A stretch of DNA of 64,000 nucleotides from Haloarcula rubra (GTDB taxonomy: Archaea > Halobacteriota > Halobacteria > Halobacteriales > Haloarculaceae), in the NCBI RefSeq assembly GCF_019599465.1, contig NZ_RKLR01000007.1, forward strand, positions 62,001 to 126,000. The letters are read 5' to 3'. Made by a program: the position numbers and the translations under genes. Shown here one piece after another: positions 7,077-24,276 of the stretch. Within the stretch, counting starts at the first letter, position 1. Each line of letters starts with the position of its first letter. The notes beneath the pieces were generated by a model, which made no database searches, had not been told where the DNA came from, and saw nothing but the letters and a program-made list of their open reading frames with translations.

Positions 7077-7097
7077 TCGGGCGCGTGCCGAACGGAG

Positions 7098-7974: not shown

Positions 7975-9089
7975 AGTGCCTCCCTGAACGCTTCGATGAG
8001 GTCCGCGGTCGGCACGTCGAAGCGCGCTCTGGCGCGGGTACCGCGTCCTGCGGCCTTGCCGTCGACGGCGTCGGCGGCGGCCCGCATCGTCGCGGCCACG
8101 TCCCGGCCGTCGGTGGCCCGGGCCGCGGCCTCGCCGTCCGTGACGACGAGCGTCACGGGTTCGGGCGCGCGGAAGTCGGCCACGAGACGGGCGACGGTGC
8201 CGACCGGCATCTGGTCGCCGCGGGCGACGAACAGGCCGTCGTATCGGCCCGTCGTCGCGTCGTCGACGGCGGCGTGGGCTCGGCGAGCGTGGGTCCGCCA
8301 CGCGGAGAGAGCGTCCTCGCGGACGCCGTCGTGACCGAGCGCGAGTGCGATGCCGACTCCGGGCCGTTCCCGGGCGACGGCGTCTAGCACGTCGGCGTAG
8401 CCGCCGACCGTCTCGAACGGCCCGCCCACGTAGGGGTGGAGGACGCGGCCGAGGGCGTCGGCGGCCCGCGGCGGCGCGTCGTCCACACCAGTGACCGACA
8501 GCGCGACCAGCGACGCGACGCGCCGGTGGTCGTCGTCGGTCGGGTCGGCGGGCAGGTCCAGTTCGGCCAGCGTCGCTCGCGCTTGCTCCTCGTCCCCCGA
8601 GAAGGGGCCCGAGAGCAGCGTCGAGTGGGCCAGCCCGTCGGCGAGGTCCGCGACCGGTATCGCGAGTCCGGGGCGGCGGTCGAGGCCCGCCTGCCCGGCG
8701 GCGCTCTCGACCGACCCGTCCACGTCGCCGCCGGCGATAGTGCCGGCGAGCGCGAGGGTCGGACTGGTCGCGGTGCCGAGTTCGCGCGCCACCTCGAAGG
8801 CGGCCGCGGCCGGCCGGTCGGCCAGCGCGTGGTCGGCGGTCGGGAGCGAGCGACCGAGGGCGACTGTCGCGTCGGCCTCCGTCGTCCGGTCGGGGTCGGC
8901 GAAGGAGGCGACGACGCTCGCCTGGAACGGCGTCCCGGCGGCGTCGAGTGCCCGCGCCACCACGCCCGCCGCGGCCAGCGAGGCGCCGGTCGCGTCGCTG
9001 ACGAGCCGAACGAAGTCGGCATCGTCGAGTGACGCGGCGACGTCACTGGCGGCGGGGGCTGGCGTCTGTTCCCGACCGGTGGTCGACAT
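7971..9089 (-). CDS. RecJ/Cdc45-like protein of the S15 operon, catalytic motifs not visible
   Basis: 372 residues between S15 and pcc1, the position where haloarchaea carry a gene annotated as exonuclease RecJ or DHH phosphoesterase. Fold-level cues remain: an N-terminal stretch VARALDAAGTPFQASVVASF in the place where an active enzyme has the HxDxDG motif, and a C-terminal DHHA1-like part (YDGLFVARGDQMPVGTVARLVADF). I find neither a DHH triad nor an HxDxD motif, so nuclease activity is doubtful. Archaeal RecJ-like proteins pair with GINS and MCM as Cdc45 counterparts; such a scaffold role is an inference. Starts on the ATG that shares one base with the S15 stop. Confidence 0.65.
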   Translation of the reverse strand: MSTTGREQTPAPAASDVAASLDDADFVRLVSDATGASLAAAGVVARALDAAGTPFQASVVASFADPDRTTEADATVALGRSLPTADHALADRPAAAAFEVARELGTATSPTLALAGTIAGGDVDGSVESAAGQAGLDRRPGLAIPVADLADGLAHSTLLSGPFSGDEEQARATLAELDLPADPTDDDHRRVASLVALSVTGVDDAPPRAADALGRVLHPYVGGPFETVGGYADVLDAVARERPGVGIALALGHDGVREDALSAWRTHARRAHAAVDDATTGRYDGLFVARGDQMPVGTVARLVADFRAPEPVTLVVTDGEAAARATDGRDVAATMRAAADAVDGKAAGRGTRARARFDVPTADLIEAFREAL

Positions 9090-9559
9090 TATTCGTCGTA
9101 GAGCAGCGCGACGGCCTTGTCGTAGCTGTAGGTGAAGTCCTCGTCGATCTCGTCACCGCGGTAGTAGTCGACGAGTCGGCGAATCTTCGACTGCGTGTTC
9201 TGGAGTGCACGCTTGTTCTGGTGGTCGCCGGGGTTCTCGTCCATGTGGTCGCGCAGACGCACTGCGCGCTCCATCAGGTTCCGGAGGTCCTCGGGCAGGT
9301 CGCCCTCGGCGTCGTTCTCCTCGAGAATCTCGGTGACCTTCTTACCGGTCGCGAGTTTGACGTTCGGGACGGGCGTGCCCTGAACACCTTCGTCGCGTAG
9401 TTTGAGGCCGATTTCGCTGGGCGAGTGGCCCTGCTCTGCGAGTTCGACGACGCGCGCTTCGATGGCGTCGTCGTCGACGTCGCTCCACTCCGGGGGTTCG
9501 TCTGCCGCGGGCTTGTCCGAGTCGGACGAGCCACGACGGCGTGTGTGCATTCGTGCCAT
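9089..9559 (-). CDS. rps15: 30S ribosomal protein S15 (uS15)
   Basis: 156 residues, normal for archaeal uS15. It begins MARMHTRRRGSS and contains LRDEGVQGTPVPNVKLATG, the rRNA-binding helix DHMDENPGDHQNKRALQNTQSKIRRLVDYY, and the end DKAVALLYDE. First gene of the four-gene operon. The start is set by the MARMHTRR family N-terminus; the frame extending upstream lacks conservation. The nearest TATA-like sequence on this strand (ACGGTTTAGTCG, about 9721-9732) would give an unusually long leader of roughly 130-140 bases. Confidence 0.95.
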   Translation of the reverse strand: MARMHTRRRGSSDSDKPAADEPPEWSDVDDDAIEARVVELAEQGHSPSEIGLKLRDEGVQGTPVPNVKLATGKKVTEILEENDAEGDLPEDLRNLMERAVRLRDHMDENPGDHQNKRALQNTQSKIRRLVDYYRGDEIDEDFTYSYDKAVALLYDE

Positions 9560-9615
9560 TGTTGTCTGGTTGGAACCGCACGAACCGCTCGTCGCTGCCG
9601 GTAGCGAGGCGTATC

Positions 9616-9669
9616 GGCATCGGTGGATGCCAAACACGGCCGCAATCCCGAGCCGTGGAAGCCCACGGC
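9616..9669 (-). promoter_or_regulatory. Structured leader upstream of S15
   Basis: The 228-base gap 9560-9787 contains two perfect hairpins: GGCATC/GATGCC with a 4-base loop (9616-9631) and GCCGTGG/CCACGGC with a 4-base loop (9652-9669). If transcription starts near the TATA-like element around 9725, both lie in the S15 mRNA leader. Bacterial S15 represses its own mRNA through leader structure; a similar role here is only a hypothesis. Confidence 0.35.
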
Positions 9670-9787
9670 GTGTCAGATTTGCGGTCGTGCTGTTCCCGTG
9701 AGTGGGTCGTCGGTCGCGCGACTAAACCGTTTCCATCTCGGGCCCGTGGCCAGTAGACATTTGTACTGGTACGTCCACCGAGGGTGC

Positions 9788-10333
9788 ATGGATAGACGTG
9801 CGTTCCTGCACAGCGGCGTCGCAGTCGCCGGCGTGGCGCTGGCCGGCTGTGGCAGCGACGCGCCGATGGGGACGCTCGCGACGTACGTCAGCGACCGCCC
9901 GGGCGACATCGGCGACTTCGACTCCTGTGTCGTCTCCGTCGACGAGATTCGCGTCCTCCCGACGGCGGCCGCGACCGAGACCGAGGACCACGAGGGGGAC
10001 GAACTGACGTTCTCCGTCGGCGGCGTCACCCTCGACCTCGTCGACCTGACCGGCGAGGCGGCCGCGCTCGCCGACACCGTCGAACTGCAGACCGGGGAGT
10101 ACGTCTACCTGAAACTCGGCGTGTCCGCCGTCGAGGCGTCGCTGTCCGACGGCGGGACGGCGATGGTGTCGACGCCAGGGAACGCCCACCTGAAGTTTCC
10201 CCATCCGTTCGAGATTCGCGCCGACGAGACGACGCGCTTCACTGCCGACTTCACGCCCGTCGCACAGGGTGAGACCGGCCGGTACGTGCTCAGTCCGGTC
10301 GCCGAGGAGACGACGGTCAGGTACGAGTCGTGA
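9788..10333 (+). CDS. DUF4382-type exported lipoprotein
   Basis: 181 residues. Twin-arginine start MDRRAFLHSG and lipobox ALAGC at about residue 21 predict a Tat lipoprotein. The body (LATYVSDRPGDIGDFDSCVVSVDEIRV, TLDLVDLTGEAAALADTVELQTGEYVYLKL) matches the DUF4382 pattern of surface proteins of unknown function. The start at 9788 opens the signal peptide. Confidence 0.8.
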   Translation: MDRRAFLHSGVAVAGVALAGCGSDAPMGTLATYVSDRPGDIGDFDSCVVSVDEIRVLPTAAATETEDHEGDELTFSVGGVTLDLVDLTGEAAALADTVELQTGEYVYLKLGVSAVEASLSDGGTAMVSTPGNAHLKFPHPFEIRADETTRFTADFTPVAQGETGRYVLSPVAEETTVRYES

Positions 10334-10396
10334 GATATCACGCTCGAAACCCGGGCCACATAGTTTATGCCTCACCGTGATTATCTAATCAAGAGA

Positions 10397-11824
10397 ATGG
10401 CGAGTGAGACGGTTCTGGAAAGTAGTCGTGGACAGAGCGGTCCACTCGGCCTCGTACTCATGTTGGCTTTAGTCGTCGCCTCGACGACCGCGGTCGTCGT
10501 CGTCGGAGCCGGTGCCATCACCGCGACCCAGAGTCAACTCGACATCGAACGCACCGAGAAGACGATGACGCAGTTCGACTCCCAAGCCGCGCTCGTCGCC
10601 CTCGGTCAGTCGAACGTCCAGCAGGTCGAACTACCGGCAGCAGGTCGCTCTAACTACGAAGTTCGTGGGAACGCGGGGTGGATGAACCTCACCTACACGA
10701 ACGCCACCGGGAACGTGACGACTATCAGAAACGGCACGCTCGGTGCCGTCGTCTACGATGGTGGCGGGACCGAAATCGCGTACCAAGGTGGTGGCGTTTG
10801 GCGTGCTGACGACGACGGCGAATCGGTCATGATCTCTCCCCCGGAGTTCCACTATCGGAGTCGGACGCTGACCCTCCCACTCGTAACTGTCTCTGGACAG
10901 GGGAATCTTGAGGGGCGGGCCAGCATCACGCGAAACGACACGACACAGTACTTCCCGGACACTGACAGAGACGAGGCGTTCCGGAACCCGCTCAACGGGA
11001 GCGACATCAACGTCACCGTCCAGAGTGACTACTACCGCGCGTGGGGGCACTACTTCGAGGAGCGGACCGATGGGACCGTGATATACGACCACCCGAACGA
11101 GACGGTGACGGCCGAACTCGTCATCCCGTTCAACGCATCTTTCGAGAACGTCGTTGCTACCACCGACCCCGGAGGGTTGTCGGTGGACGGCGCCGGCAGT
11201 CCGCCCACACCGAACGAACAGGGCGTCGCGTTCCCCTCCGTTGACGAACGGATTGAGGACGAGGTTTCGGACTGCCAGAGCGGCGGTTGTGATATTTCAG
11301 AACCATCGACAATTAATAGCGACGGGACCTACTACTACGCCAACGACCCCGGCAGTCTGACCGTAGATAACCCCGGTGGCAACGTCACCATCGTCGTCAA
11401 CACGGGTGGGACAGAGTTCGAGACCGAAGATATCGAACTTCGCGGCGTCGACGGAAACCATGGTGTGTCTATCCTTGTCAGGCATTCGCTGGGACTCGAC
11501 GGCGGCGATTCGGTCAACGTGGTTGACGGCGACCCCAGTGAACTCAAGGTACTCGTCCACTCTGATGGGGACGTCGATTTCGGCGGGAGTACCAACTTCG
11601 TGGGCCTGTTGGTGGCGCCGGGGTCGTCCTGCAATCAGAACGGTGCCGGTTACATCGAAGGCGGGATAATCTGTGAAACCGTGGAAATCAATGGCAACCC
11701 CTCGAATACCGTCACGTACAACAGTTCGGTCCAGCAGATCGACCTCGATCTAACGAACCCCAGCGACACGCAGATTACGTACCTCCACGTCTCGGTCAAC
11801 GACGTGAACGTGAGCGACGCCTAA
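10397..11824 (+). CDS. Large pilin-like surface protein (DUF7289-type)
   Basis: 475 residues from the ATG at 10397; a TATA-like CATAGTTTATG at 10359-10369 lies about 30 bases before it, which favours this leaderless start over the upstream ATG inside the promoter. After 13 residues (ESSRGQSG) comes one hydrophobic helix, PLGLVLMLALVVASTTAVVVVG, as in haloarchaeal type IV pilin-like proteins processed by PibD. The long ectodomain is asparagine/threonine-rich with many NxS/T sequons and ends in FVGLLVAPGSSC...GGIICE, a beta-solenoid-like segment seen in PilX/DUF7305-type proteins. Convergent with the pseudopilin operon at 11826-15132, two bases away. Probably an extracellular filament-associated subunit. 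Confidence 0.65.
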   Translation: MASETVLESSRGQSGPLGLVLMLALVVASTTAVVVVGAGAITATQSQLDIERTEKTMTQFDSQAALVALGQSNVQQVELPAAGRSNYEVRGNAGWMNLTYTNATGNVTTIRNGTLGAVVYDGGGTEIAYQGGGVWRADDDGESVMISPPEFHYRSRTLTLPLVTVSGQGNLEGRASITRNDTTQYFPDTDRDEAFRNPLNGSDINVTVQSDYYRAWGHYFEERTDGTVIYDHPNETVTAELVIPFNASFENVVATTDPGGLSVDGAGSPPTPNEQGVAFPSVDERIEDEVSDCQSGGCDISEPSTINSDGTYYYANDPGSLTVDNPGGNVTIVVNTGGTEFETEDIELRGVDGNHGVSILVRHSLGLDGGDSVNVVDGDPSELKVLVHSDGDVDFGGSTNFVGLLVAPGSSCNQNGAGYIEGGIICETVEINGNPSNTVTYNSSVQQIDLDLTNPSDTQITYLHVSVNDVNVSDA

Positions 11825-11825
11825 C

Positions 11826-12572
11826 CTACCGCTCGATGTCGATTCTGATGTCGTGGCTGACGACGTAGGTGCGCTCGACCGACCCGGTCGTCGGATATTC
11901 ACAGCGCATCACGGTCGACGTCTGTGTGGGACAGTCGAATCCCTGCCCGAGGAAGTAGTCGCTCCACAGTGGCGCCCGCGTCGACTCAATCTTGATTGAG
12001 ACGTTGGTCGCCGCACCGCTAGTGTCGCCGTACCGAACGGCCGACCCGTCATTGAGCGTCCGGACGAGCGCGGTCGATCCGCCGACGCTGGTCCCGTTAG
12101 ACGCGCGCAGGACGACCATATTGAGGAGGAACCGGCCGTCCCGGACCACGTGAGGTGGCTGTCGGACGAGGAGACCACCGTCCGGGTTGGTCCTGAAGAC
12201 CGCGCCCATGTTGTACACCAACCGCTGATCCCGTTCGTTGCGGTACACGATGGGCGTCGAGGTTCGATTCAGGACGTAATCCCCGTCTACGGTTACGTTT
12301 ACCGTCGCGGGATTGCCGGTGTACAGCGTCGCCTCCCCGACACTCACCTCGGTCCCACGGCTGGGGGCACCGCGTCTGTACACGTCGGCGACGTTGTCGG
12401 CGAGGATGTCGAACGCCCGCTCGCCGTTGTCGAGTTGCTCGGCGCTCTTCACGTCGTCCAGCGTGGCGAGTCCACCGACAGAGACGACCGCGACCGTAGA
12501 GACGACAAGGCTGAACACGAGGACGTACCCGAGGACCTCGCTCACCCCTCGAGAGTCGGTCGGCTCAGGCAT
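11826..12572 (-). CDS. Pseudopilin-like protein (DUF7289-type)
   Basis: 248 residues from the ATG at 12572. N-terminus MPEPTDSRGVSEVLG, then helix YVLVFSLVVSTVAVVSVGG: a short hydrophilic leader ending in a glycine, then an E at +3, close to the class III signal of pilins. The ectodomain has sequons, VYRNERDQRLVYNMGAVFRTNPDGGLLVRQPP and a single Cys pair near the end. Last gene of the five-gene minus operon; overlaps its predecessor by eight bases. Distinct from but related in layout to the large protein at 10397. Confidence 0.65.
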   Translation of the reverse strand: MPEPTDSRGVSEVLGYVLVFSLVVSTVAVVSVGGLATLDDVKSAEQLDNGERAFDILADNVADVYRRGAPSRGTEVSVGEATLYTGNPATVNVTVDGDYVLNRTSTPIVYRNERDQRLVYNMGAVFRTNPDGGLLVRQPPHVVRDGRFLLNMVVLRASNGTSVGGSTALVRTLNDGSAVRYGDTSGAATNVSIKIESTRAPLWSDYFLGQGFDCPTQTSTVMRCEYPTTGSVERTYVVSHDIRIDIER

Positions 12573-13017
12573 CGCGTACCTCCAGTGCGTCACTCGTTCC
12601 GTTGTAGGCCACCTCGACGACGCCGCCGTCGACTGTCGATACCCGGAGGTCAGTCCGGCTCGTCACGCTGACCGTGACTCTGACTTCGGGGTCCGTCGAA
12701 GTGAGGACGAGCCGCTCGGCACTCGGGTCGAGACGCGCCTGGTAGCCGCTACCCGCCACTCGTTCGGGGAAGGTCTGTCGGGTCTCGGCTTCCAGCGACG
12801 ACCCGCTACTGTTCGCCGCTACGACCAGTCTGTCGACCCGTGCGAGGTCGGCTGCGACTTGCTGGCCGACGACTGTCAGCTCTTCCCTGATGACGTTCTC
12901 CTGTCGGCCCTCGACGAAGTCTGTCCCCGCTATCAGTAGCCCTGTCACTAGGATGGCCGTGATTGACAGCGTGAGCACGTAGTTGAGTGCCGTCGAGACG
13001 GCCCGTGACTCAGACAT
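12565..13017 (-). CDS. Pseudopilin-like protein (DUF7266-type)
   Basis: 150 residues from the ATG at 13017, which overlaps the preceding stop by eight bases. N-terminus MSESRAVSTALN followed by helix YVLTLSITAILVTGLLIAG, again a charged leader, RA and one transmembrane segment. The rest is beta-strand rich (VRVTVSVTSRTDLRVSTVDGGVVEVAYNG). Fits the small minor-pseudopilin pattern; no enzymatic motif. Confidence 0.62.
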   Translation of the reverse strand: MSESRAVSTALNYVLTLSITAILVTGLLIAGTDFVEGRQENVIREELTVVGQQVAADLARVDRLVVAANSSGSSLEAETRQTFPERVAGSGYQARLDPSAERLVLTSTDPEVRVTVSVTSRTDLRVSTVDGGVVEVAYNGTSDALEVRDA

Positions 13018-13969
13018 CGGGCTCACCCGGTGCGACCCGCACCGTCGTGTTGTACCGCACGTCGGGACCGTCGTACACGAACCGGACCGTCGCGTCGTAG
13101 ATGGCGTCGCCCGACGGGGACAGTAGCGGGAGCGATAGCCCACCGTCGTCGTAGACCACCAGTTCGAACTCCCCGCTCACGCCGTTCGTGTTCTCGAAGT
13201 GGATTGCGTAGTCACTCCCACTAGCGAGGACGCCGTTCCCGTACCAGAAGTTCTCCCCGTCGTCGTTCCACCGCAGGGCATCACACGGTTGATCGTTCAC
13301 CAGTCCGGCAGTCACCTGGATGCGGTTCTCCGGTGCCGACGAAACCGAACAGTGCTCGGTCCGGTTCTCTGACGGGGTCGTCCCGTTCCGTATCGTCTGT
13401 ATCTGCACACCGCTGCTGTTCTCCCAGATACGGGCGCGCCAGCTCCGCTCGTCGCCGTCGAAATCCGTGTCGTTCACCTTCACGACCAGTGGGGGGTCGC
13501 TCCCGTCCGGAAGCCCGGAGGAGTTGAACGCCAGTCCTCTGGTCCCGTTCGCGTCCGGCACCCGCTCGACGTCGCCGACCACGGTGTAGTTATCGTCTCC
13601 CTGGTCGATGCTCCCGTTGATACGTTCTCCCTCCCGATGGTCGACGTAGGTGACGTTGACCAGCGTCCCGGATGTAGCCGACAGGTACTCGCTCTGTGTA
13701 CTCACGTTCCGGAGACTCCGATTGAACGCGGCGACCGGCGCGGACCCGTTGTAGTAGTTCGCACGGTCCATGGCCTCGCCTACGTTCGCTTCGACGCTCG
13801 CCCTGGCGGCCAGTGCACCGTCACTCCCAGCTGTCTCGCCCCGGCTCGCGAGGTTCTCGGTGAAGATGGCGGAGTTGACTACGAGAGCCAGTCCGATGAA
13901 CACGAGTGCGAGCGCCAACCCGGCGACGAGCAGGAGCTGCCCGCGCTCGTCGTCGCTCAGATCCGCCAC
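13010..13969 (-). CDS. Pseudopilin-like protein (DUF7261-type)
   Basis: 319 residues. N-terminus MADLSDDERGQLLLVAG followed by helix LALALVFIGLALVVNSAIF, then an ectodomain with many NxS/T sequons and a disulfide-capable Cys pair (HCSVSS, QPCDAL). The largest of the operon; size and single N-terminal helix recall the GspK-like tip subunit of type II systems, though homology is not shown. Overlaps the upstream gene by 13 bases. Confidence 0.62.
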   Translation of the reverse strand: MADLSDDERGQLLLVAGLALALVFIGLALVVNSAIFTENLASRGETAGSDGALAARASVEANVGEAMDRANYYNGSAPVAAFNRSLRNVSTQSEYLSATSGTLVNVTYVDHREGERINGSIDQGDDNYTVVGDVERVPDANGTRGLAFNSSGLPDGSDPPLVVKVNDTDFDGDERSWRARIWENSSGVQIQTIRNGTTPSENRTEHCSVSSAPENRIQVTAGLVNDQPCDALRWNDDGENFWYGNGVLASGSDYAIHFENTNGVSGEFELVVYDDGGLSLPLLSPSGDAIYDATVRFVYDGPDVRYNTTVRVAPGEPDV

Positions 13970-14541
13970 GACACCACCTCCACGCGGACCGTGTTGTAGA
14001 CGTTTGCCCCCCGGTCGGGAATCGGGAAGCCAGTTGCTTCCGACAGCGTCGTCTCGTTCTGCGTCCCATCGGAGTCGTAGAGGTGGTCACCGTCCATCAG
14101 CGTGACTGTGTACGAGGCCGCCACCGCGTTGTCGCTTGGACGCCCGTTGTACAGGTAGATTATCCGGCTCTGACTACCGCCGTCGCGGTACCGAAAGTAG
14201 ACGTTGTACGCGATGCCACGCTCGTCGAAGACACGTTCGAGCATCGTACCGAACGTATTGTTCGGGGGGGTGCTGGCATACTTACCAAGCCCCGTCCCGC
14301 TCTCGTTGTGGTACTTCTGGCTGCTGTTGTTCCAGTACAGCAGCGCTGGCTTGAGCGCGGCACGCTCCGCCGCAGTCGCCAACACCCCCTCGCTGACGGA
14401 CTGCTGTTGGTTCTCGATGTGCTGGCTCGACGTACTCGCCGATAGCGGGGTCACCGCCGTCATCTGTAACGCGAATATGAGCCCAGTCAGGAGCACGAGA
14501 CTGGCGACGATAGCCTCCAGTGTGTGTGCCTGCCCCCGCAC
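13957..14541 (-). CDS. Pseudopilin-like protein (DUF7288-type)
   Basis: 194 residues. It starts MRGQAHTLEAIVASLVLLTGLIFALQMT, so the RGQ sits right at the N-terminus and an E follows five residues later inside the helix, as in pilins. The ectodomain contains YWNNSSQKYHNESG and a C-terminal VYNTVRVEVVSWRI strand. It follows the first operon gene without a gap. Confidence 0.62.
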   Translation of the reverse strand: MRGQAHTLEAIVASLVLLTGLIFALQMTAVTPLSASTSSQHIENQQQSVSEGVLATAAERAALKPALLYWNNSSQKYHNESGTGLGKYASTPPNNTFGTMLERVFDERGIAYNVYFRYRDGGSQSRIIYLYNGRPSDNAVAASYTVTLMDGDHLYDSDGTQNETTLSEATGFPIPDRGANVYNTVRVEVVSWRI

Positions 14542-15126
14542 TTACCACACCTCCACGACGACGGTCACGTCCGCTCCGTTCAGCCAGACGACTCTGAGGG
14601 CCGTCACCGTCGCTTCGTTGCCTGCCGGCACTGTTTCCCCACGCGTCAGGTTCGTCCCCGTCGACGGACAGGCTGTCGACGCGACCAGCGAATCGTTGCC
14701 GTAGTCCCAACAGAGGGTGTCTCTGCTGGTCACCGTCGACGACGCGTTTCCGACGACAGTCACGTTGACGCTCTGGGTCGCCGGGTCGAGGCCGAGTTGC
14801 TTTGCTATAGGTGCCGGCGAGAACGCGCACCCAGTCGTGTTCTCGAAGAACTGGACCGTGCAGTGGGTCCGCAACGAGTGTGGGTCACGCGGTGACCCCA
14901 GCACCGATTTGGTGAGATGGTCGGCCGCTCGGTCGGCGCTCACAGTCTGCTCCTGCGCGCTCGCGGTGAACGGCGATAACAGCCCCGGAACGAAGAGAAA
15001 TATGAAGATTAATACCCCCAAAAAGAGGCTGACGCCGATGGCGAAGTCGAGGTTGGTCTGTCCTCGCGACGCAGACCCCGCCCGCGGCTCTCCGTCCGAG
15101 CACGTACGTTTCGTATCCCGTTGCAT
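14542..15126 (-). CDS. Pseudopilin-like protein (DUF7287-type)
   Basis: 194 residues from the ATG at 15126; a GTG two codons upstream (15132) is the alternative. A 20-residue polar leader ends in SRGQTNLDFAIG, then helix VSLFLGVLIFIFLFVPGLL. The ectodomain has two Cys pairs and ends in TVVVEVW. First gene of the operon; its promoter must lie in 15127-15245, where GGATAAGAGC (minus strand, about 15170) is the most AT-rich candidate. Confidence 0.62.
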   Translation of the reverse strand: MQRDTKRTCSDGEPRAGSASRGQTNLDFAIGVSLFLGVLIFIFLFVPGLLSPFTASAQEQTVSADRAADHLTKSVLGSPRDPHSLRTHCTVQFFENTTGCAFSPAPIAKQLGLDPATQSVNVTVVGNASSTVTSRDTLCWDYGNDSLVASTACPSTGTNLTRGETVPAGNEATVTALRVVWLNGADVTVVVEVW

Positions 15127-15245
15127 ACTCACTACCGACCCGTGGTACCTGCTTGAGCCTCACACTCAATGCTCTTATCCATTGTGGCGTGTGTGACTCG
15201 ACTGACGGACGGCACCGACTCGCACGCCCACCACGCTTCGATGGG

Positions 15246-15254
15246 TTTAATAAA
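15246..15254 (+). promoter_or_regulatory. TATA box of tRNA-Ala
   Basis: TTTAATAAA, centred about 33 bases before the first tRNA base, matches the archaeal box A consensus and spacing. Confidence 0.6.
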
Positions 15255-15282
15255 TGCCACCGGATACCATTTGATGCAACGA

Positions 15283-15354
15283 GGGCTCGTAGATCAGGGG
15301 TAGATCACTCCCTTGGCATGGGAGAGGCCCCGGGTTCAAATCCCGGCGAGTCCA
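15283..15354 (+). tRNA. tRNA-Ala (anticodon GGC)
   Basis: 72 nucleotides including the discriminator A. Acceptor GGGCTCG pairs with CGAGTCC; the third pair is G3-U70, the classic alanine identity element. D stem GATC/GATC, anticodon stem CTCCC/GGGAG with loop TTGGCAT (anticodon GGC, reads GCC and GCU), T stem CCGGG/CCCGG with TTCAAAT loop. No intron. CCA is not encoded. Its last 14 bases are repeated exactly at 18207-18220. Confidence 0.97.
15341..15354 (+). repeat. Left attachment-type repeat (inside tRNA-Ala)
   Basis: TCCCGGCGAGTCCA, the 3' end of the tRNA gene, is identical to 18207-18220 in the same orientation. The match stops at the last tRNA base, which is how tRNA-targeted integrases usually leave att sites. 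Confidence 0.55.
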
Positions 15355-15420
15355 CTACAATTTCTCCGCCGTAACAAGGGTTCACGACCGCAAGGTGCGG
15401 ACTCTGATACAGCCGGATTC

Positions 15421-15591
15421 GCCATTTCCGGGTTAGCAAACGCTCCCTCGAAGAGGGGAGTTCGACAGGATTGCAAGCGCGGGTCTCGCCGTCCGGCGAT
15501 TTCTGAGAGGGAAGTCTGTCGCTACTGTGGCGACTTCGCCGACCAGCACTATCGCTGTCCCGCCCTCGACGACGGGAGGTGCCGCCCATGA
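15421..15591 (+). pseudogene. Fragment of a small zinc-finger gene
   Basis: The frame ends ISEREVCRYCGDFADQHYRC...DDGRC and a TGA that overlaps the next ATG (ATGA). The CxxC...C...C pattern is convincing zinc-finger coding sequence and the coupling to the next gene looks real, but no ATG or GTG occurs in frame downstream of the tRNA, so the 5' end seems to have been lost, perhaps at integration. Confidence 0.35.
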
Positions 15592-15917
15592 CCGTCACGC
15601 TGGAGACGCCGTGTCTCACGGACGGCAACTGGGTCCGCAGGCCGGCCGACTCCCGAGGTGTCGACGGGCACGATCTCTGCGACCAGTGTTTCCCCGACGG
15701 CTGGGACACGGTCACCGAGAAAGACGTCGAGACGTTCCTGACGACCGGTCGAACGCGGTCGAAACTCCACCGAAGTATCGACACTGGCGACGACGCCGAT
15801 ACCAGCGAGTTCGGGAATCACGACTATCCCGACCGAACACTCGCCTCGCGAGTCCTGAACGACGAGGTCACGGTCGAACACGAGTTCGAGTGGGACCGCG
15901 CGGGAGGTGACGTCTAG
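15588..15917 (+). CDS. Small cysteine-containing protein of the tRNA island
   Basis: 109 residues, starting at the ATG that overlaps the preceding TGA. N-terminal TPCLTDGNWVRR and DLCDQCFPDGW suggest a zinc site; the C-terminal half is acidic (DDADTSEFGNHDYPDRTLASRVLNDE). Not recognised. Such small zinc proteins are common in haloarchaeal plasmids and proviruses. The stop is followed immediately by the ATG at 15918. Confidence 0.45.
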   Translation: MTVTLETPCLTDGNWVRRPADSRGVDGHDLCDQCFPDGWDTVTEKDVETFLTTGRTRSKLHRSIDTGDDADTSEFGNHDYPDRTLASRVLNDEVTVEHEFEWDRAGGDV

Positions 15918-16308
15918 ATGGTGTCGCACGACGACGAGTGCGAGTCTTGCGGTGCCACCGGTCGGCGACCAGAGTGCGGTGGCCCGACGGCGAGTATCGC
16001 GAGATGTGTGGCCCCTGTGAGCGGCGCTGGCTCATCGTCTGGCGGCACAGCAGGAGCACTTGCTGCTGACCGTCCTGCGAGATATGACGCCGGCCGACCA
16101 GTCGATGGCCGAGACGCTCGCGACCGACGGCGGGATGCGCGCCGAGCAGCTTGCCGACGCGACCGACACGTCGCAATCGACCGTCTACCGGATGCTACAG
16201 AGGCTTGAGGGTATCGTCACCAGCGATGACGGACACGTCCGCTCGACGTTTCGGGTTAGCAGCAGTTGTTCCCGTCGGGATTCCATTCACACGCATCGCC
16301 CGTTGTGA
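15918..16308 (+). pseudogene. Broken zinc-finger and winged-helix gene remnants
   Basis: Coding-like pieces lie in three frames. From 15918: DECESCGATG. From about 15977 in another frame: WPDGEYREMCGPCERRWLIVW, which would complete a two-CxxC zinc knuckle. From about 16045 in the third frame: LLTVLRDMTPADQSMAETLATD, then LADATDTSQSTVYRMLQRLEG, a helix-turn-helix. The last piece runs into the antisense gene at 16256 with a non-biological tail. At least two frameshifts would be needed to join them, so this is decayed DNA or several truncated genes. Confidence 0.4.
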
Positions 16309-16477
16309 GACCCTCCTCGTCGATGTGAGCGGAGAGACAGGCGTGGTTACAGAAGTACTTCGCTGACCCGCAGTCATCGGTACAGTCACGGACACAGATG
16401 GGCTCGTGGTCGAAGATACGCGACCCGCAGTACACACATACCTCGTCGACGTCGGGTGTTTCTATAGTCGTAGACAT
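16256..16477 (-). CDS. Small multi-cysteine zinc protein
   Basis: 73 residues with CVYCGSRIFDHEP, ICVRDCTDDCG, FCNHACLSAHIDEEG and a C-terminal GNNCC: ten cysteines and several histidines, enough for two or more zinc sites. The FCNxxCLSxH part resembles treble-clef or FLZ-like fingers. Function unknown; related small proteins occur in haloarchaeal mobile DNA. Begins with ATG at 16477. Confidence 0.6.
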   Translation of the reverse strand: MSTTIETPDVDEVCVYCGSRIFDHEPICVRDCTDDCGSAKYFCNHACLSAHIDEEGLTTGDACEWNPDGNNCC

Positions 16478-16841
16478 ACGTGTACTAAGGACTCTCTCAG
16501 TGAAAACGGTTCTTCACGCACCGATGGGTATGTCACCTGTTTGTAGCGGTCGTGCCGACGGAAATTTCCACTGATTCCAGTGACCGACTCGTGCTGTGTA
16601 TTCAGCACGACTTCTACAAACTATCCGGAGTGATGGTGGGATATTCGTCGACGGAGAACTAGAGTATAATCGGTTCGACGAAGAATCTGAGGACTCCGCG
16701 CTACCCTGATGATGGCTTTGGCGGTACGTACAATCACTCCGAATAAGATGAGGTCATAGAACGATTGGCAAACCACAGCTACCCGTCGGAAAATCGTTCG
16801 GTACAGAGACTGGACCCGCTTCGTACTGGTGGCCGATGGCG
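16478..16841. other. AT-richer gap with no supported gene
   Basis: This 364-base stretch holds the promoter side of the zinc protein, the inverted-repeat unit at 16539-16621 and, beyond it, no frame with convincing composition. A 77-codon minus-strand frame (16621-16854) ends exactly at the inverted repeat but has an arginine-rich, non-acidic composition unlike halophile proteins. Confidence 0.5.
16539..16621. repeat. 83-bp unit with terminal inverted repeats (MITE or IS-end like)
   Basis: Left arm 16539-16555 (GTTTGTAGCGGTCGTGC) and right arm 16605-16621 (GCACGACTTCTACAAAC) are inverted copies matching at 15 of 17 positions. Inside are two more hairpins: CACTG/CAGTG (16569-16582) and TCGTGCTG/CAGCACGA (16589-16610), the latter sharing its right half with the outer arm. 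No clear target-site duplication is seen. Confidence 0.5.
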
Positions 16842-17123
16842 TTATCGGACCCAACAGTCGACGACAACGCGGCTATCGCGCATGGGTTTCATTTTATCGA
16901 CCGGGACACCGGTCGAGTCGTCACCTTCGACGTCGATTAGGCGAGGCGCTTCGTCGACAGTCTCGTCTGGGTGGACTTGCTCGACACTGTTCGCTGCGAA
17001 TATCGTGTCCGGGGTGCTGGCTTCAGTGGGCTCATCGTCGTAACAGAGATATAGACCTGTCTCCCGGATACACACGGCTGCAAACTCGTGTTCGGAATTC
17101 GTGTCGGTGATGAGACGAACCAC
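16842..17123 (-). CDS. Hypothetical acidic protein of the tRNA island
   Basis: 93 residues from a GTG start two bases after the stop of the DUF7522-like gene, so the two form an operon. Sequence is acidic with EFAAVCIRETGLYLCYDDEPTE and TIFAANSVEQVHPDE segments, good halophile composition. No domain recognised. Confidence 0.45.
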   Translation of the reverse strand: MVRLITDTNSEHEFAAVCIRETGLYLCYDDEPTEASTPDTIFAANSVEQVHPDETVDEAPRLIDVEGDDSTGVPVDKMKPMRDSRVVVDCWVR

Positions 17124-17125
17124 GT

Positions 17126-17539
17126 TCAGTTACCGTTGTTCCCGATCGCCTCTCTGCGCTCTTGGATGGCAATCTCTCTGGCATCAGCCACCAGCCCGTG
17201 GGTATCACCAAACGCATCGCTATCCAGCGCCACTGTCGTCCCGACACCGTCCTCGATGACGAAATTCATCTCGATAACGTTCTCGAAGCACTTTACCAAA
17301 CAGGTCAATTCACCGTGGTCTTCAGAGAAGATATCGCTATAAATCGGTGCTGCTAGCGACTCCAGTCGCGAGTCGTCGATCGCCTTGTCAATTTCTTCAG
17401 TAGCATACTGGTCACCGACATCGTCTCGGAGATATATCACCGTGAAATCGCCCTGCTCGTAGTTTACGATGCTCCGGAGGCTCCCATCGGTTTCCGCGCG
17501 AAAAAACGATTCTAAACGGGAAGCCAGCCGTTGTGACAT
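17126..17539 (-). CDS. DUF7522-type haloarchaeal protein
   Basis: 137 residues. SLRSIVNYEQGDFTVIYLRDDV near the N-terminus, followed by ELTCLVKCFENVIEMNFVIEDG, matches the pattern of DUF7522 proteins, which are frequent next to haloarchaeal signalling and accessory genes; function unknown. A near-ideal box TTATATAA at 17562-17569 is centred 27 bases upstream of the ATG, indicating a leaderless transcript. Confidence 0.6.
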   Translation of the reverse strand: MSQRLASRLESFFRAETDGSLRSIVNYEQGDFTVIYLRDDVGDQYATEEIDKAIDDSRLESLAAPIYSDIFSEDHGELTCLVKCFENVIEMNFVIEDGVGTTVALDSDAFGDTHGLVADAREIAIQERREAIGNNGN

Positions 17540-17561
17540 CGAATAGTAATGACTTCTCGAA

Positions 17562-17569
17562 TTATATAA
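17562..17569 (-). promoter_or_regulatory. TATA box of the DUF7522-type gene
   Basis: TTATATAA, centred about 27 bases upstream of the ATG at 17539, the usual spacing for leaderless haloarchaeal genes. Confidence 0.55.
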
Positions 17570-17730
17570 CTCTTGGGCTGAATGTTTTGATGATTATCGC
17601 TACAATAATACTTTTTTACTTGTTGCTGGCGAGATTTGGTGATTCGGACCTTTCGACTGCCGAATCTGTTTTCGATACTATTTACAGTATGACCCTCGAT
17701 CAACGGCCGAAATATCAGAACTACCAAAAT

Positions 17731-17737
17731 TTTAATA
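17731..17737 (+). promoter_or_regulatory. TATA box of the zinc-ribbon microprotein
   Basis: TTTAATA in an AAAATTTTAATACAT context, centred about 29 bases before the ATG at 17763. Confidence 0.45.
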
Positions 17738-17762
17738 CATAGTCCTGTCAGCGCTACTGATA

Positions 17763-17888: not shown

Positions 17889-18053
17889 ATCCGGATTGCA
17901 GATTTGTACCAGTAGTCGTATGCAGGTGTGCTAATCGGTTGTTGCAGTTTGACTAATTGAGGATCGAACTACGGTCTGCACGAGAGTAAGGGCGTCTCGT
18001 GCATCAAAATATCCGCTCTCAGAAACAAACCACTCGACGATGTGGTCTGATAT

Positions 18054-19729: not shown

Positions 19730-21769
19730 TTACCCCACGGCCATCCACACGACGAGCGCTATCGTCGAGAGGACGACGGCGAACTTCACGCCCGCCATGA
19801 GGTTCACCTCGCGGATGTACCCCGCGATGAACGAGGAGAGGAGCGCCTGCAGGGTGACGGCGTGGAAGAACAGCATCGACAGGAGGTCGACGTCGACGCT
19901 GCCACCGAACCCGCCACCAGTCGCCCCGGAGCCACCGGCACCGGATGCCTGAGTCGCCAGTCCGGACATCACGTCCAGGAACTGCGTCTTCAGCAGGGCC
20001 ATCACGCCCAGCAGGGTGAGGTAGGTCATGATGATGATGACCATCTGCATCCGGGTGCGCGACTTCCGTTCCCGTGCGATGTCGTCCTGATTCTCGGAGG
20101 CCTGTGCGGCCGTCGAGAGCACGTCCTGAATCTGGCTGGAGGCCTCCTGTGCCTCGGCGATGAGTTTCACCGTCCGGGCCAGTCGCGGGACGTGGTACTT
20201 GTTGTTGAACTCCCGGAGGGCCTCCTTGAGACTGGTCCCGTAGTTGACTTTCGCGTGCATCGTCTCGAACTCCTCTGAGAGTTTCCCGGCCGACGTCTCG
20301 GAGACCACTTTGATGGACTCCAGCAGGGTCATCCCGGTGTCGTTGGCCGAGGCGAGTTTCCGGAGGTTGTCCGAGAGGTTGCCGATGATGGCCTTCCGCG
20401 AGCGCTGGTTCCACTCGTAGAAGATGGTCAGCGGGACGAAGTTGATGTACATCGGGACGTACACCCAGAAGAACGTCCCCGGCACGGGCCGGTTTATCAT
20501 CCCTTCGAGCGACAGCGGTGCCTGTCCGAGGACGACGGCGGCGACGACAGCGAGGATGGAGAGCGGGATCGTCAGCCCCAGTACGAGCATCGGATGGTCG
20601 CGGAAGAACAGGTGTGGCTGCTTGAGAATCTGGAGGAGTTCGTAGGTCCCCTCACGGCTCTTCACGCGGTCGAAGACGGCGTAGGTGCCGGTGTACTGCT
20701 CGACGAGGCCGAGGTTGAACACGCCGATGCCCTCGTCGACGACGATGTCGTCCTCGCTGGCGTCGGGACGGAGGTAGCCGTCGCCGATGGAGTCCTGCGT
20801 GACCGTCGACACCAAGACCAAAAAGGCCATCCCGGTCAGCGGGATGAGGCCGTAGACGGTGCCGTAGATGAGCGTCTGCTGAGCGTTGCCCATCATCGAC
20901 ATGATGACGAGGATGATGATGAGCAAGAGGGGGAACAGCGAGAGGGTCATGTACATCTCGCCGAACAGTTCCAGCGTCTCCAGCATCTTCTCCTGTTCCT
21001 GCCGGGCGGTCCGCATGTGCTTCTCCTTCTGGTCCTCGAGGAACGAGGTCATGTCCCCCCCGGAGTTGATGATCGAGAGCATGTCGGTGAGGAACTGCGA
21101 GAGGCTGTCGGAGGGCGTTTCGAGGGCCTGATTCCGCACCGCGGTCCGGTAGTCCGTGTCGAAGTACTCCGTCTCCAGGACGATGGACTGGAACTCCTTC
21201 GCCACCTCGCCGTAGGTGTCGTCGGCCTTCCCCATCGCTTGCAGGATTTCGAGTTGGTTCAGCCCGCCCACGGAGAGGGCGTACATGAACGAGATGGAAT
21301 CGGAGAGGAGGATGTTGATTTCGCGTTCGCGGGCGCTCGCTCGGAAGTACGGGATAGAGACGAGCGAGCCGAATCCGATGCCGAAGCCGATAGCGCCGAA
21401 GACGACGCCGGTCACCAGCACGAGGAAGGGAATCTTCAGCGCGTCGACGACGGCGAGCAGCGTCTCGTTCTGGATGACGATACCGATGAACGTCGGCCCT
21501 TCCGAACCCGAAAAGAGGAGGGTGACGAGCAGATAGCCGAGTAGCGTGCCGACGAGCCACAGCGCGAGCCCGGCGATGACGCCCACGGCCAGCGCCCGCG
21601 CGAGGAACATCTCGACGTTGTCGGCCATCCGGGCCTCCGCGAGTTTCGTCTCGACGCTGTCGACGAAGTCACCCTCCTCGTCGAACAGCGTCTGGAAGGC
21701 CGGATAGAAGGCGTCGCCGAGAGTGCCACCGCTCCCGAGTTGTTGCTGGCCCTTCGTGTCGAGGCTCAT
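19730..21769 (-). CDS. PilC/TadC-type membrane platform protein of a type IV pilus-like system
   Basis: 679 residues with two type II secretion F domains (roughly residues 145-310 and 460-610), each followed by transmembrane helices, plus N- and C-terminal helices, the duplicated layout of archaeal PilC. Motifs: SFMYALSVGGLNQLEILQAMG, SGGDMTSFLEDQKEK and the second copy LASANDTGMTLLESIKV. It should anchor the assembly ATPase to the membrane and guide pilin insertion. A glycine-rich GAGGSGATGGGFGG loop sits near the C-terminus. Overlaps the ATPase gene by four bases. Confidence 0.85.
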   Translation of the reverse strand: MSLDTKGQQQLGSGGTLGDAFYPAFQTLFDEEGDFVDSVETKLAEARMADNVEMFLARALAVGVIAGLALWLVGTLLGYLLVTLLFSGSEGPTFIGIVIQNETLLAVVDALKIPFLVLVTGVVFGAIGFGIGFGSLVSIPYFRASAREREINILLSDSISFMYALSVGGLNQLEILQAMGKADDTYGEVAKEFQSIVLETEYFDTDYRTAVRNQALETPSDSLSQFLTDMLSIINSGGDMTSFLEDQKEKHMRTARQEQEKMLETLELFGEMYMTLSLFPLLLIIILVIMSMMGNAQQTLIYGTVYGLIPLTGMAFLVLVSTVTQDSIGDGYLRPDASEDDIVVDEGIGVFNLGLVEQYTGTYAVFDRVKSREGTYELLQILKQPHLFFRDHPMLVLGLTIPLSILAVVAAVVLGQAPLSLEGMINRPVPGTFFWVYVPMYINFVPLTIFYEWNQRSRKAIIGNLSDNLRKLASANDTGMTLLESIKVVSETSAGKLSEEFETMHAKVNYGTSLKEALREFNNKYHVPRLARTVKLIAEAQEASSQIQDVLSTAAQASENQDDIARERKSRTRMQMVIIIMTYLTLLGVMALLKTQFLDVMSGLATQASGAGGSGATGGGFGGSVDVDLLSMLFFHAVTLQALLSSFIAGYIREVNLMAGVKFAVVLSTIALVVWMAVG

Positions 21770-24276
21770 CCGCTATCTGCCTCCTTCCCGGCCTTCGGGA
21801 CGAACTGTCCGAAGTCGCTCTCGTCGTCGTCGTCCTCGGCCTCTGCCAGTGCGTCGCCGTCCATCAGCGCCGAGACGATGTCCGTCGTGTCGCCGCTGGT
21901 GAACTGGTCGAACAGCGGCCCGGCGTTGTCCAGCACCGCTTTGGTCTCCTCGACCATCTCCGGCGGGGCGTCGGGACGCGGGACCATCTCCTCTTTCTCG
22001 GGGTCGATGTTGATCTTGACAGACTCCATCTCCCGCAGGTCTTCGAGCGACTGTTCGAGTTGGTCGTTGGCGATGAGCGTGAGGATGGTCTCGGGGTCGT
22101 TGATGAACGCCTGAATCGTCGCGGCGACCTGCGTGTAGGTGTTCAGTCCCTGTTCGATGAGGTACGCCAGCACGACCTTCCGCTTGAACAGTTCCTCGTC
22201 GAGTTTCTCCTGGGTCCACCCGCGGTCGAACTTGACTTCCTCTAAAGTGTTGGAGTTACCCATCTGGATGTACTCGTCCGTCTCGGCGCGCCACTCGTAG
22301 ACGTCGCGGACGTTTATCTCGTCGTTCTCGGCGGAGTACTCGTTTATTTCCGTGAGTGACTTGTTCCGGCGCACCTTGTTGCCGTCGACCCGAGTCTGGG
22401 TCTGGATGGAGACGAGGTCCAGCGCCGTAAAGAGCGTCTTCGAGACGTTGATGGGTTCGGTCGTGAAGCGTTTGATGACCTCGCCGACGGAGTCGGCGTG
22501 GAACGTGGTGTAGGTGGTGTGGCCGGTCGACATGACCTGAAACAGGGTGCGACCTTCCTCGCCACGGATCTCACCCATGACGATGTAGTCCGGGCGCTGG
22601 CGGAGTGCGGCCTCCAGCAGGTCGAACTCGTCGACGTCGCCGGTGTCGTCCTCACCGAAGGAAGGGCGGGTGACACTGGCGACCCAGTTGCGCTGTGGCA
22701 ACTCGACCTCGCGGGTGTCCTCGATAGAGACGATTTTGGAGTTGGAGGGGATGAACAGCGAGACGGCGTTCAGGCTCGTCGTCTTCCCCGAGGCGGTCCC
22801 GCCGGCGAAGATGAGCGACTTGTGGTTCTCGATACAGAGCCAGAGGAACGCCATCTCGTCCAGCGAGAACGTGTTCCAGTTGATGAGGTCGATGGGGGTG
22901 AACGGGACGTCTTTGAACTGACGGATGGTGTAGTTGGTCCCGTGGTCCGAGACCTCCCGGCCGAGCGTCAACTGGGCACGCGACCCGTCGGGGAGCGTCG
23001 CGTCGACCTGTGGCTGTCGCTTCGAGATACCCTTCCCGGACCGCTGGGCGAGTTTGACGACGAAGTCGTCGAGTTCTGTCTGACCGTGTTCGACGTTCGA
23101 GATTATCTGCTCGTAGTCGGTGTGGTAGACGAACACCCGGGAGTTGTACCCGTCACAGGAGATGTCCTCGACGTTGATGTCGTGTTTGATGGCGTCGATG
23201 CGGGCGTAGCCGATGAAGTCCCGTTTGAGTTCGTACAGCAGTTTCTCGACCTGATACTCGTTGAGCGTCGCGGGGTCGTCCTCGAGAAACGCCGGTTCGG
23301 GCCGCGACGAGATGCCGTCGAGTTGCCCGACGTCTTCGGACTCCTCGGCCGCCTCACCCATGTCGAACAACTCTTTCACCTGGTCGAGGATGCCGCCGCT
23401 CTCGCCGCTGTCGGCACCGACCGTCCCGTCGTAGAGGTCGTATCTGGACAGGAGGTTCTCGGCCTCGCGCTGGATGACCTCGGCCCGGTCGGCGTTCGAC
23501 CCCTGAACGATGACCTCGTCCTCGGAGTACTTGATGGCCGTCTTGAGCTTTCCGGAGAGGAACTGCTTGAGGTCGTCTTCGATGGGGTTGAGATACGGTT
23601 CGACGACGTAGTACTTCTTCTCGTTCTCCTTACGAGAGTGGAAGATGACGACGCAGGCGTAGGGCTTGTTGACCCAGTACCGCTCTAACTCTTTGAAATG
23701 CGACTTCTTGCTCTGCGGGACGGCCTTCTCGAGGTCGTAGCGGTTGACGACGGTCGTGTGGCCCTGTCTGGTCGAGAAGAACGCGTCCTCGTCCAGTTCC
23801 GGGTTGACGTCGACGGTGTTCTCGTCGACGACGTCGGCCAGTTCGGACGCGAAGTCCTCGGCCCGTGAGAGGCGGTTCTCGGTGTGGTCCGGGTCGAAGC
23901 CGAGGTGCTCCTCGCCGTCGAACGGGACGACTTCGCCCTCCCCGTCCCGCGGGAGCGCACCGTCCTCGTAGTAGTACTCCTGTTTGAAGTGCTCCCACGT
24001 GTAGACGTCCTTGGTGACCGGCGTCGTCGTCGGGTCGAGGTACTCCTCGAACGGTCCGTTCAGCGTGAGGGCCGCACTCGCGGCCGCCTCCACCTTGTCG
24101 TCGAGTTGGCGTGGCTCGAACCCGAGGTACTCGCTCCGGTCGAAGCGCCCCCCGTCGTGGAACTCCCGTCGCACGTCGTCCCAGGTGTACTCCCCCACGG
24201 CCGCCGGCCGGTCGGCGCCAGTCCCACCCTCGCCGACCTCGTTCGGCTCCGTCCCCCCCGTGTCATCAATTGCCAT
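21766..24276 (-). CDS. PilB/TadA-type secretion ATPase
   Basis: 836 residues. The VirB11/PilB core has the Walker A motif GGTASGKTTS near residue 490, an Asp box SIEDTREVELPQ, Walker B-like DYIVMGEIRGEEG near residue 567 and the His box STGHTTYTTFHADS near 588. The first 230 residues hold two similar YTWDDVRREF / YTWEHFKQEY modules, perhaps a duplicated N1-like domain. A long acidic C-terminal extension follows. It powers assembly or secretion through the PilC-type partner, its downstream neighbour. Start chosen at the ATG of MAIDDTGG. Confidence 0.88.
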   Translation of the reverse strand: MAIDDTGGTEPNEVGEGGTGADRPAAVGEYTWDDVRREFHDGGRFDRSEYLGFEPRQLDDKVEAAASAALTLNGPFEEYLDPTTTPVTKDVYTWEHFKQEYYYEDGALPRDGEGEVVPFDGEEHLGFDPDHTENRLSRAEDFASELADVVDENTVDVNPELDEDAFFSTRQGHTTVVNRYDLEKAVPQSKKSHFKELERYWVNKPYACVVIFHSRKENEKKYYVVEPYLNPIEDDLKQFLSGKLKTAIKYSEDEVIVQGSNADRAEVIQREAENLLSRYDLYDGTVGADSGESGGILDQVKELFDMGEAAEESEDVGQLDGISSRPEPAFLEDDPATLNEYQVEKLLYELKRDFIGYARIDAIKHDINVEDISCDGYNSRVFVYHTDYEQIISNVEHGQTELDDFVVKLAQRSGKGISKRQPQVDATLPDGSRAQLTLGREVSDHGTNYTIRQFKDVPFTPIDLINWNTFSLDEMAFLWLCIENHKSLIFAGGTASGKTTSLNAVSLFIPSNSKIVSIEDTREVELPQRNWVASVTRPSFGEDDTGDVDEFDLLEAALRQRPDYIVMGEIRGEEGRTLFQVMSTGHTTYTTFHADSVGEVIKRFTTEPINVSKTLFTALDLVSIQTQTRVDGNKVRRNKSLTEINEYSAENDEINVRDVYEWRAETDEYIQMGNSNTLEEVKFDRGWTQEKLDEELFKRKVVLAYLIEQGLNTYTQVAATIQAFINDPETILTLIANDQLEQSLEDLREMESVKINIDPEKEEMVPRPDAPPEMVEETKAVLDNAGPLFDQFTSGDTTDIVSALMDGDALAEAEDDDDESDFGQFVPKAGKEADSG

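What the first reader, a model, noticed from the sequence alone, without database searches (positions are those of the whole stretch)
10397..15132. Six-gene pseudopilin-like set, five in one overlapping operon
Each of the six products has a short charged leader ending in RG or RA, then one hydrophobic helix, then a sequon-rich ectodomain: RGQSG, SRGVSE, SRAVST, ERGQLL, MRGQAH and SRGQTN. Overlaps of 8, 8 and 13 bases couple the minus-strand genes. This looks like a full set of minor subunits for an extracellular filament or secretion pseudopilus, not the usual single adhesion pilin. The families are known only as DUFs, so the machine is essentially uncharacterised.
Basis: partly seen in the sequence, partly recalled or inferred. 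Interest (0 to 1): 0.65.

Follow-up and report, generated by a model that had tools for sequence, protein, structure and literature searches.

The report
Pilin set of a haloarchaeal pilus
These six genes encode the pilus subunits of an already catalogued but untested archaeal surface filament (the PilB4 type IV pilus), whose motor genes lie a few kilobases away in the same window; five of the subunits keep the same gene order across nearly all salt-loving archaea checked, and the sixth looks like an adhesive pilus tip.

Summary
Six open genes carry a short leader, an R[GA]|[QV] processing site and one hydrophobic helix; overlaps are 8, 8 and 13 bases, and the fifth gene abuts. Pfam names them DUF7287, DUF7288, DUF7261, DUF7266, DUF7289 and, convergent, DUF7289+DUF7305. 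In 73 of 80 named haloarchaeal loci the five genes keep this order, and where PilC is held it is usually (59 of 67) within 300 bp upstream. The host carries a second, unbroken copy. Neighbours RecJ and S15 match H. volcanii HVO_1147-1148, so this is the PilB4 locus described computationally in 2016. Seven non-haloarchaeal loci keep the order too. Two AlphaFold models show long N-terminal helices. The sixth protein adds a beta-solenoid resembling ice-binding (DUF3494) proteins, and its homologues swap that domain. DUF7287 has an invariant Asp at +5, DUF7288 a Glu at +6, DUF7261 neither. Best reading: a type IV pilus minor-pilin cassette, five subunits probably priming and capping the filament, plus a modular adhesive pilin. 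No structural match to GspH/I/J/K was found, and the tip role is inferred. A secretion pseudopilus has no support.

The parts
10397..11824 (+). Modular pilin: DUF7289 pilin domain plus C-terminal DUF7305 beta-solenoid, convergent to the operon
   Evidence: Pfam; AlphaFold pLDDT 90.4, one 54-residue helix 15-68, beta domain 74-264, second beta domain 310-440; Foldseek top hits are DUF3494 ice-binding proteins; convergent homologue in at least 63 of 80 loci
11826..12572 (-). DUF7289 pilin, SRG|VSE
   Evidence: Pfam E 1e-63; last gene of the conserved order
12565..13017 (-). DUF7266 pilin, SRA|VST, shortest subunit
   Evidence: Pfam E 1.5e-22; R[GA] site in 78/78 homologues
13010..13969 (-). DUF7261 pilin, ERG|QLL, largest operon subunit, no acidic residue at +3 to +7
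   Evidence: Pfam E 5e-8; 0 of 73 homologues acidic at +3 to +7; two conserved Cys
13957..14541 (-). DUF7288 pilin, MRG|QAHTLE, Glu at +6
   Evidence: Pfam E 1.4e-64; AlphaFold pLDDT 89.7, helices 3-27 and 35-59 then antiparallel sheet
14542..15126 (-). DUF7287 pilin, SRG|QTNLD, invariant Asp at +5, first gene of the operon
   Evidence: Pfam E 1.3e-37; Asp+5 in 80 of 80 homologues; conserved Cys pair
19730..21769 (-). PilC/TadC platform protein (two T2SSF domains)
   Evidence: Pfam E 6e-28, two stretches; homologue within 300 bp upstream of DUF7287 in 59 of 67 loci that hold it
21766..24276 (-). PilB4-type assembly ATPase, 836 aa, overlaps pilC by 4 bases
   Evidence: T2SSE E 6e-32 and PilB3_C E 4e-7
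15283..15355 (+). tRNA-Ala(GGC) that separates pilBC from the pilin operon in the Haloarcula group (not part of the system; marks the split)
   Evidence: ARAGORN

Best explanation
The six genes encode the dedicated pilin set of the PilB4-PilC4 type IV pilus of haloarchaea. Each prepilin is inserted in the membrane, cut after R-G/A by the prepilin peptidase, probably N-glycosylated, and lifted into a filament by PilB4 and PilC4. The five operon products are most likely minor pilins that start the filament and stay at its tip: DUF7261, which lacks the helix acid, as cap; DUF7287 (Asp+5) and DUF7288 (Glu+6) below it; DUF7266 and DUF7289 joining to the shaft. The convergent DUF7289-DUF7305 protein is a modular pilin carrying an ice-binding-like beta-solenoid, most likely an adhesin. 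The shaft pilin is either DUF7266 or a PilA-type protein encoded elsewhere. Shown by computation: locus identity, fixed order, processing motif, two folds, domain swapping. Inferred: cleavage, filament, tip position, order of subunits, adhesion.
For: PilB and PilC in the window on the same strand. Second complete copy in the same genome with PilB, PilC and all five genes in one run. DUF7287-7288-7261-7266-7289 in this order in 73 of 80 named haloarchaeal loci, PilC within 300 bp in 59 of 67; same order in seven loci of other Halobacteriota. Synteny with RecJ2 HVO_1147 and Rps15 HVO_1148 and with the published PilB4 locus HVO_1160. DUF7288 in 138 of 145 Halobacteria; eight genomes without a sound DUF7288 also lack DUF7287, six with it have DUF7287, and all 14 keep PilA-type pilins. 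One Peptidase_A24 gene in the genome. Helices of 54 and about 57 (kinked) residues in two models. Acid pattern fits the rule that tip complexes are capped by a subunit without Glu5. C-terminal domains of the sixth family vary: DUF7305 37, DUF7308 22, bactofilin 10, pAdhesive_15 4 of 60; ice-binding-protein folds lead the Foldseek list at E 0.003-0.008, prob 0.99-1.00.
Against: No Foldseek or profile match to any solved pilin or pseudopilin. The Foldseek hits to ice-binding proteins do not pass E 0.001. A 2016 census proposed that the PilB4 system has its own major pilin (arCOG03926), which may be one of these five, so not all need be minor. PilA-type genes sit next to the locus in only 4 of 80 haloarchaeal loci (all Halobaculum or a close relative), plus the host's second copy. 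No experimental filament is known from PilB4. The DUF7288 motif count is partly circular because the scan was seeded on it.
Confidence: 0.6

Rival explanations
1. The five operon products are structural subunits of a mixed filament, with one (most likely DUF7266, the shortest and with a PilA-like N-terminus) as the major pilin, and no special tip complex.
For: The 2016 census assigned the PilB4 system its own major pilin and suggested the other pilins are structural parts of the filament; DUF7266 is 116-183 residues after the cut and its start resembles PilA; DUF7289 members match Pilin_N weakly.
Against: One copy of each per operon and wide size range (145-306 residues median) look like a set of distinct roles; DUF7287 and DUF7261 bear conserved cysteines unlike DUF7266. 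PilA-type genes flank the locus in some genomes.
Confidence: 0.25
2. A type II-like secretion pseudopilus that pushes proteins through the cell surface.
For: Five pseudopilin-like subunits with one lacking the acid residue recall GspG-K; no long filament has been reported for PilB4 in the papers read.
Against: No structural or sequence match to Gsp proteins; the ATPase and platform group with archaeal pilus and archaellum proteins; the sixth subunit carries an adhesin-like domain; archaea of this group have one membrane and no secretin (established knowledge).
Confidence: 0.05
3. A short membrane-bound surface-sensing or sugar-binding assembly (bindosome-like) rather than an extended pilus.
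For: Ice-binding-like and bactofilin-like domains on the largest subunit; PilB4 is made only in glycerol minimal medium in the proteome survey.
Against: Bindosome ATPase model scores far below its cut-off (181.6 against 1000 bits); no binding-protein subunits in the locus.
Confidence: 0.08

Closest known systems
PilB4 locus of Haloferax volcanii (euryarchaeal type IV pilus, clade 2, Makarova et al. 2016, PMC4858521)
   Same: Long PilB with extra terminal domains, PilC, own pilin set, duplicating 250-550 aa minor pilin (arCOG02911, which fits DUF7289), near rps15 and recJ2
   Different: In the window the motor and pilin genes are split by about 4.6 kb with a tRNA-Ala; the mapping of arCOGs to DUFs was not testable here
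PilB3-PilA1-6 adhesion pili of H. volcanii
   Same: Same class of ATPase, platform and prepilin cleavage site
   Different: PilB3 locus encodes no pilins; PilA proteins are Pilin_N (PF07790), which these six are not above cut-off; genomes without the DUF7287/7288 module keep PilA
GspHIJK / PilHIJK tip complex of bacterial type II secretion and type IVa pili
   Same: Four or five distinct minor pilins, one without the acid residue near +5
   Different: No detectable sequence or fold similarity
Modular pilins of Streptococcus sanguinis (PilB, PilC; PMC9934059)
   Same: Pilin domain with a grafted extra domain that is known (there) or suspected (here) to be adhesive
   Different: Grafted domain here is a beta-solenoid close to DUF3494 ice-binding proteins, not a lectin; adhesion untested
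Tad (type IVc) minor pilins TadE/TadF
   Same: DUF7287 start Q-T-x-L-D-F-A resembles the TadE start by eye (from memory, a lead only)
   Different: No Pfam TadE match in any of 44 members at E up to 1

Membership tests
Type 4 filament (archaeal type IV pilus) system | Extension ATPase of the PilB/VirB11 family with the set | tested here: met
   T2SSE E 6e-32 at 21766-24276; homologues beside the set in dozens of genomes
Type 4 filament (archaeal type IV pilus) system | Platform protein PilC/TadC | tested here: met
   Two T2SSF domains, 19730-21769
Type 4 filament (archaeal type IV pilus) system | Class III signal peptides on the subunits | tested here: met
   6 of 6, conserved across families
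Type 4 filament (archaeal type IV pilus) system | Prepilin peptidase in the genome | tested here: met
   One Peptidase_A24 match over cut-off, G000:C22:81409-81789
Type 4 filament (archaeal type IV pilus) system | Long N-terminal alpha helix (about 50 residues) in the subunits | tested here: met
   Two of the six modelled: helix 15-68; 3-27 plus 35-59. The other four not modelled
Type 4 filament (archaeal type IV pilus) system | Actual filament made of these subunits | not testable with these tools
   Needs microscopy and proteomics
PilB4-type locus of haloarchaea | PilB with halobacteria-specific N- and C-terminal extensions | tested here: met
   836 aa with the ATPase at 417-630; the two module-linked PilBs are the longest frames (838, 873) of eight in the genome
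PilB4-type locus of haloarchaea | Synteny with H. volcanii rps15 (HVO_1148) and recJ2 (HVO_1147) | tested here: met
   S15 at 9089-9556 and the RecJ-like gene at 7971-9089 adjoin the set; the RecJ label itself rests on synteny, as Pfam gave no family
PilB4-type locus of haloarchaea | Pilin families arCOG02911 and arCOG03926 | not tested
   arCOG profiles were not available; size and duplication of DUF7289 fit arCOG02911
GspHIJK-type tip complex | Fold similarity of the ectodomains to GspH/I/J/K | tested here: not met
   DUF7288 model and fusion model: no pilin among the Foldseek hits listed; profiles of five families negative in PDB
GspHIJK-type tip complex | One subunit without the conserved acid, others with it | tested here: inconclusive
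   DUF7287 Asp+5 80/80, DUF7288 Glu+6 81/82, DUF7261 none; but DUF7266 lacks it too
GspHIJK-type tip complex | The subunits bind one another | not testable with these tools
   No multimer prediction offered
PilA adhesion pilin family (Pilin_N, PF07790) | Pilin_N match over the curated cut-off | tested here: not met
   Best window member 16 bits against cut-off 25.2
Ice-binding (DUF3494) fold, C-terminal domain of the sixth gene | Significant structural match | tested here: inconclusive
   Top five Foldseek hits are ice-binding proteins, prob 0.99-1.00 but E 0.003-0.008

The most novel reading that the evidence does not exclude
The five operon genes are an archaeal tip-priming complex that serves the role of bacterial GspHIJK with unrelated or unrecognisably diverged heads, kept in fixed order across the Halobacteriota, and it displays an interchangeable ice-binding-like adhesin on a modular pilin.
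Probability: 0.4. Interest if true: 0.6.

Novelty: new member of a known kind. Interest (0 to 1): 0.42.

Why it matters
Six Pfam families of unknown function get a concrete role as subunits of one pilus. The module is in about 95% of the haloarchaeal genomes sampled, which makes PilB4 one of the most conserved and least studied archaeal surface machines, and it gives a defined set of deletions to test in a model archaeon. If the tip reading holds, archaeal pili start and end like bacterial ones although the subunit heads share no recognisable similarity.

Tried and rejected
PDB sequence profiles for five families found nothing credible. Foldseek of the DUF7288 model against PDB and viral structures found nothing. 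TadE membership of DUF7287 was checked through Pfam on 44 members and not found. No paper in the library uses the DUF names. A duplicated tRNA-Ala 3' end that would mark an integrated element between the motor and the pilins was looked for and not found in the window. The secretion-pseudopilus reading was considered and put low for want of any Gsp-like part.
Full report
WHAT IS THERE. Pfam assigns DUF7289+DUF7305 (10397-11824, +), DUF7289 (11826-12572), DUF7266 (12565-13017), DUF7261 (13010-13969), DUF7288 (13957-14541) and DUF7287 (14542-15126), the last five on the minus strand. Overlaps of 8, 8 and 13 bases are exact; DUF7288 and DUF7287 abut. All six pass a FlaFind-like pattern, against 2 of 45 other genes of the window, both of which look spurious; sequon density is 7 to 21 times the background of the other genes.

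The window also holds a PilB-type ATPase (21766-24276) and a PilC platform protein (19730-21769), same strand, the two overlapping by 4 bases. Between them and the pilins lie an MBL-fold protein, a DUF7522 protein and a tRNA-Ala(GGC). The genome (4.67 Mb, closest named relatives Haloarcula) has eight T2SSE matches and two DUF7288 genes. The second DUF7288 gene lies in an unbroken run PilB - 131 aa - PilC - DUF7287 - DUF7288 - DUF7261 - DUF7266 - DUF7289, with a PilA-type pilin and another DUF7289 fusion next door. That copy ties the five pilins to this motor directly.

HOW WIDE AND HOW FIXED. DUF7288 is in 138 of 145 Halobacteria sampled; among 14 control genomes it rings only in H. volcanii. 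A scan of named genomes gave 80 loci (the best 80 of 186, so biased towards closer relatives). The order DUF7287-7288-7261-7266-7289 is intact in 73; PilC is on the held stretch in 67 and within 300 bp upstream in 59; most exceptions are the Haloarcula, Halosimplex and Halomicrobium group; a convergent DUF7289 or DUF7289-7305 gene follows in at least 63. In the twelve loci of that group scanned for tRNAs, tRNA-Ala sits upstream of DUF7287, while in Halorarius and Haloferax it lies beyond the convergent gene. A DUF7288 profile also reaches genomes of the phylum outside Halobacteria. Seven such loci were read, and all keep the same order, one with PilC and PilB alongside. Seven genomes without DUF7288, and one with only a weak match, lack DUF7287 too; six with DUF7288 have it; all 14 have PilA-type pilins. 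So the set is inherited as a unit, separately from PilA.

IDENTITY WITH THE PilB4 LOCUS. The set adjoins RecJ-like and S15 genes. HVO_1147 is RecJ2 and HVO_1148 is Rps15 in H. volcanii, and PilB4 is HVO_1160. Makarova et al. 2016 (PMC4858521) describe the PilB4 locus as having its own pilin set, extra N- and C-terminal domains on the ATPase, and a duplicating minor pilin of 250-550 aa shared with the PilA system; DUF7289 fits that description. They also propose a major pilin, arCOG03926, which I could not map to a DUF. A 2015 review (PMC4371748) says PilB4-C4 probably assembles a pilus-like structure from two relatively large pilins encoded nearby. PilB4 was detected only in glycerol minimal medium in a proteome survey (PMC7305310) and is down-regulated during HFTV1 infection of H. 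gibbonsii (PMC12542753). No function has been shown in the papers read.

STRUCTURE. DUF7288: pLDDT 89.7, helix 3-27, a break at the conserved T31-P32, helix 35-59, then an antiparallel sheet. DUF7289-DUF7305: pLDDT 90.4, one helix 15-68, a beta domain 74-264, a linker helix and a second beta domain 310-440. Foldseek finds no solved pilin for either. For the fusion protein the top five hits are ice-binding proteins (DUF3494 fold), prob 0.99-1.00, E 0.003-0.008, aligned over 220-250 columns. The solenoid call for DUF7305 rests on this, on pAdhesive_15 (putative ice-binding-like adhesive) matches in 4 of 60 homologues and on Bactofilin matches in 10. Other homologues carry DUF7308 (22 of 60) or CARDB (1). 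A constant pilin part with exchanged outer domains is what defines modular adhesive pilins (PMC9934059, PMC10191384).

HOW IT LIKELY WORKS. Known type 4 filaments start from a tip complex of minor pilins capped by a subunit without Glu5. Here DUF7287 has Asp at +5 in 80 of 80 and DUF7288 Glu at +6 in 81 of 82, while DUF7261 has no acid at +3 to +7 in 73. The DUF7288 count is partly circular, because the scan used R[GA]QA[HY]T[LV]E[AG]; the independently found non-haloarchaeal copies whose start was printed also keep the Glu, and two of the DUF7287 copies keep the Asp. From this I infer DUF7261 as cap and the others below it. The order, the contacts and the tip position are not shown. The shaft pilin is open: DUF7266 (shortest) or a PilA-type protein encoded elsewhere, which sits beside the locus in four haloarchaeal loci, in the second copy of this genome and in two outgroup loci.

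VERDICT. A real, well-conserved pilin cassette of a known but untested archaeal pilus. Confidence that it is the pilin set of a PilB4-type pilus is about 0.93 (my estimate); that the operon products act as a tip and priming complex, about 0.5; hence 0.6 for the combined statement. New relative to the literature I could read (the figures and supplements of the 2016 census were not readable here, so parts may already be in them): the DUF-by-DUF order and its reach, the acid pattern, the two folds, the exchangeable ice-binding-like domain, and the split by tRNA-Ala in the Haloarcula group.

Noticed in passing
L047 (G000:C4:10000-28000), 4609-16764: A second, unbroken copy of the whole system in the same genome, next to a KaiC/RadA-like gene, a PilA-type pilin and a 593 aa DUF7289-fusion pilin; a 131 aa acidic protein lies between PilB and PilC.
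   Followed up: partly
window 15283-19700: The stretch between tRNA-Ala and pilC varies widely in length among Haloarcula-group genomes (about 0.5 to over 9 kb), suggesting an insertion-prone site; no integrase gene was noticed and no repeat of the tRNA 3' end was found in the window.
   Followed up: partly
window 9623-10333: A DUF4382 protein with a Tat-lipobox-like start lies beside the convergent pilin; DUF4382 homologues are on about 15 of the related loci, often at the same place.
   Followed up: no
G066 (weak DUF7288 match, E 9.5e-5): This genome has a weak DUF7288 remnant and no DUF7287 or DUF7289, possibly a decaying copy of the module.
   Followed up: no
L136 and L139: Two tandem copies of the pilin set stand side by side in genomes outside Halobacteria.
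   Followed up: no
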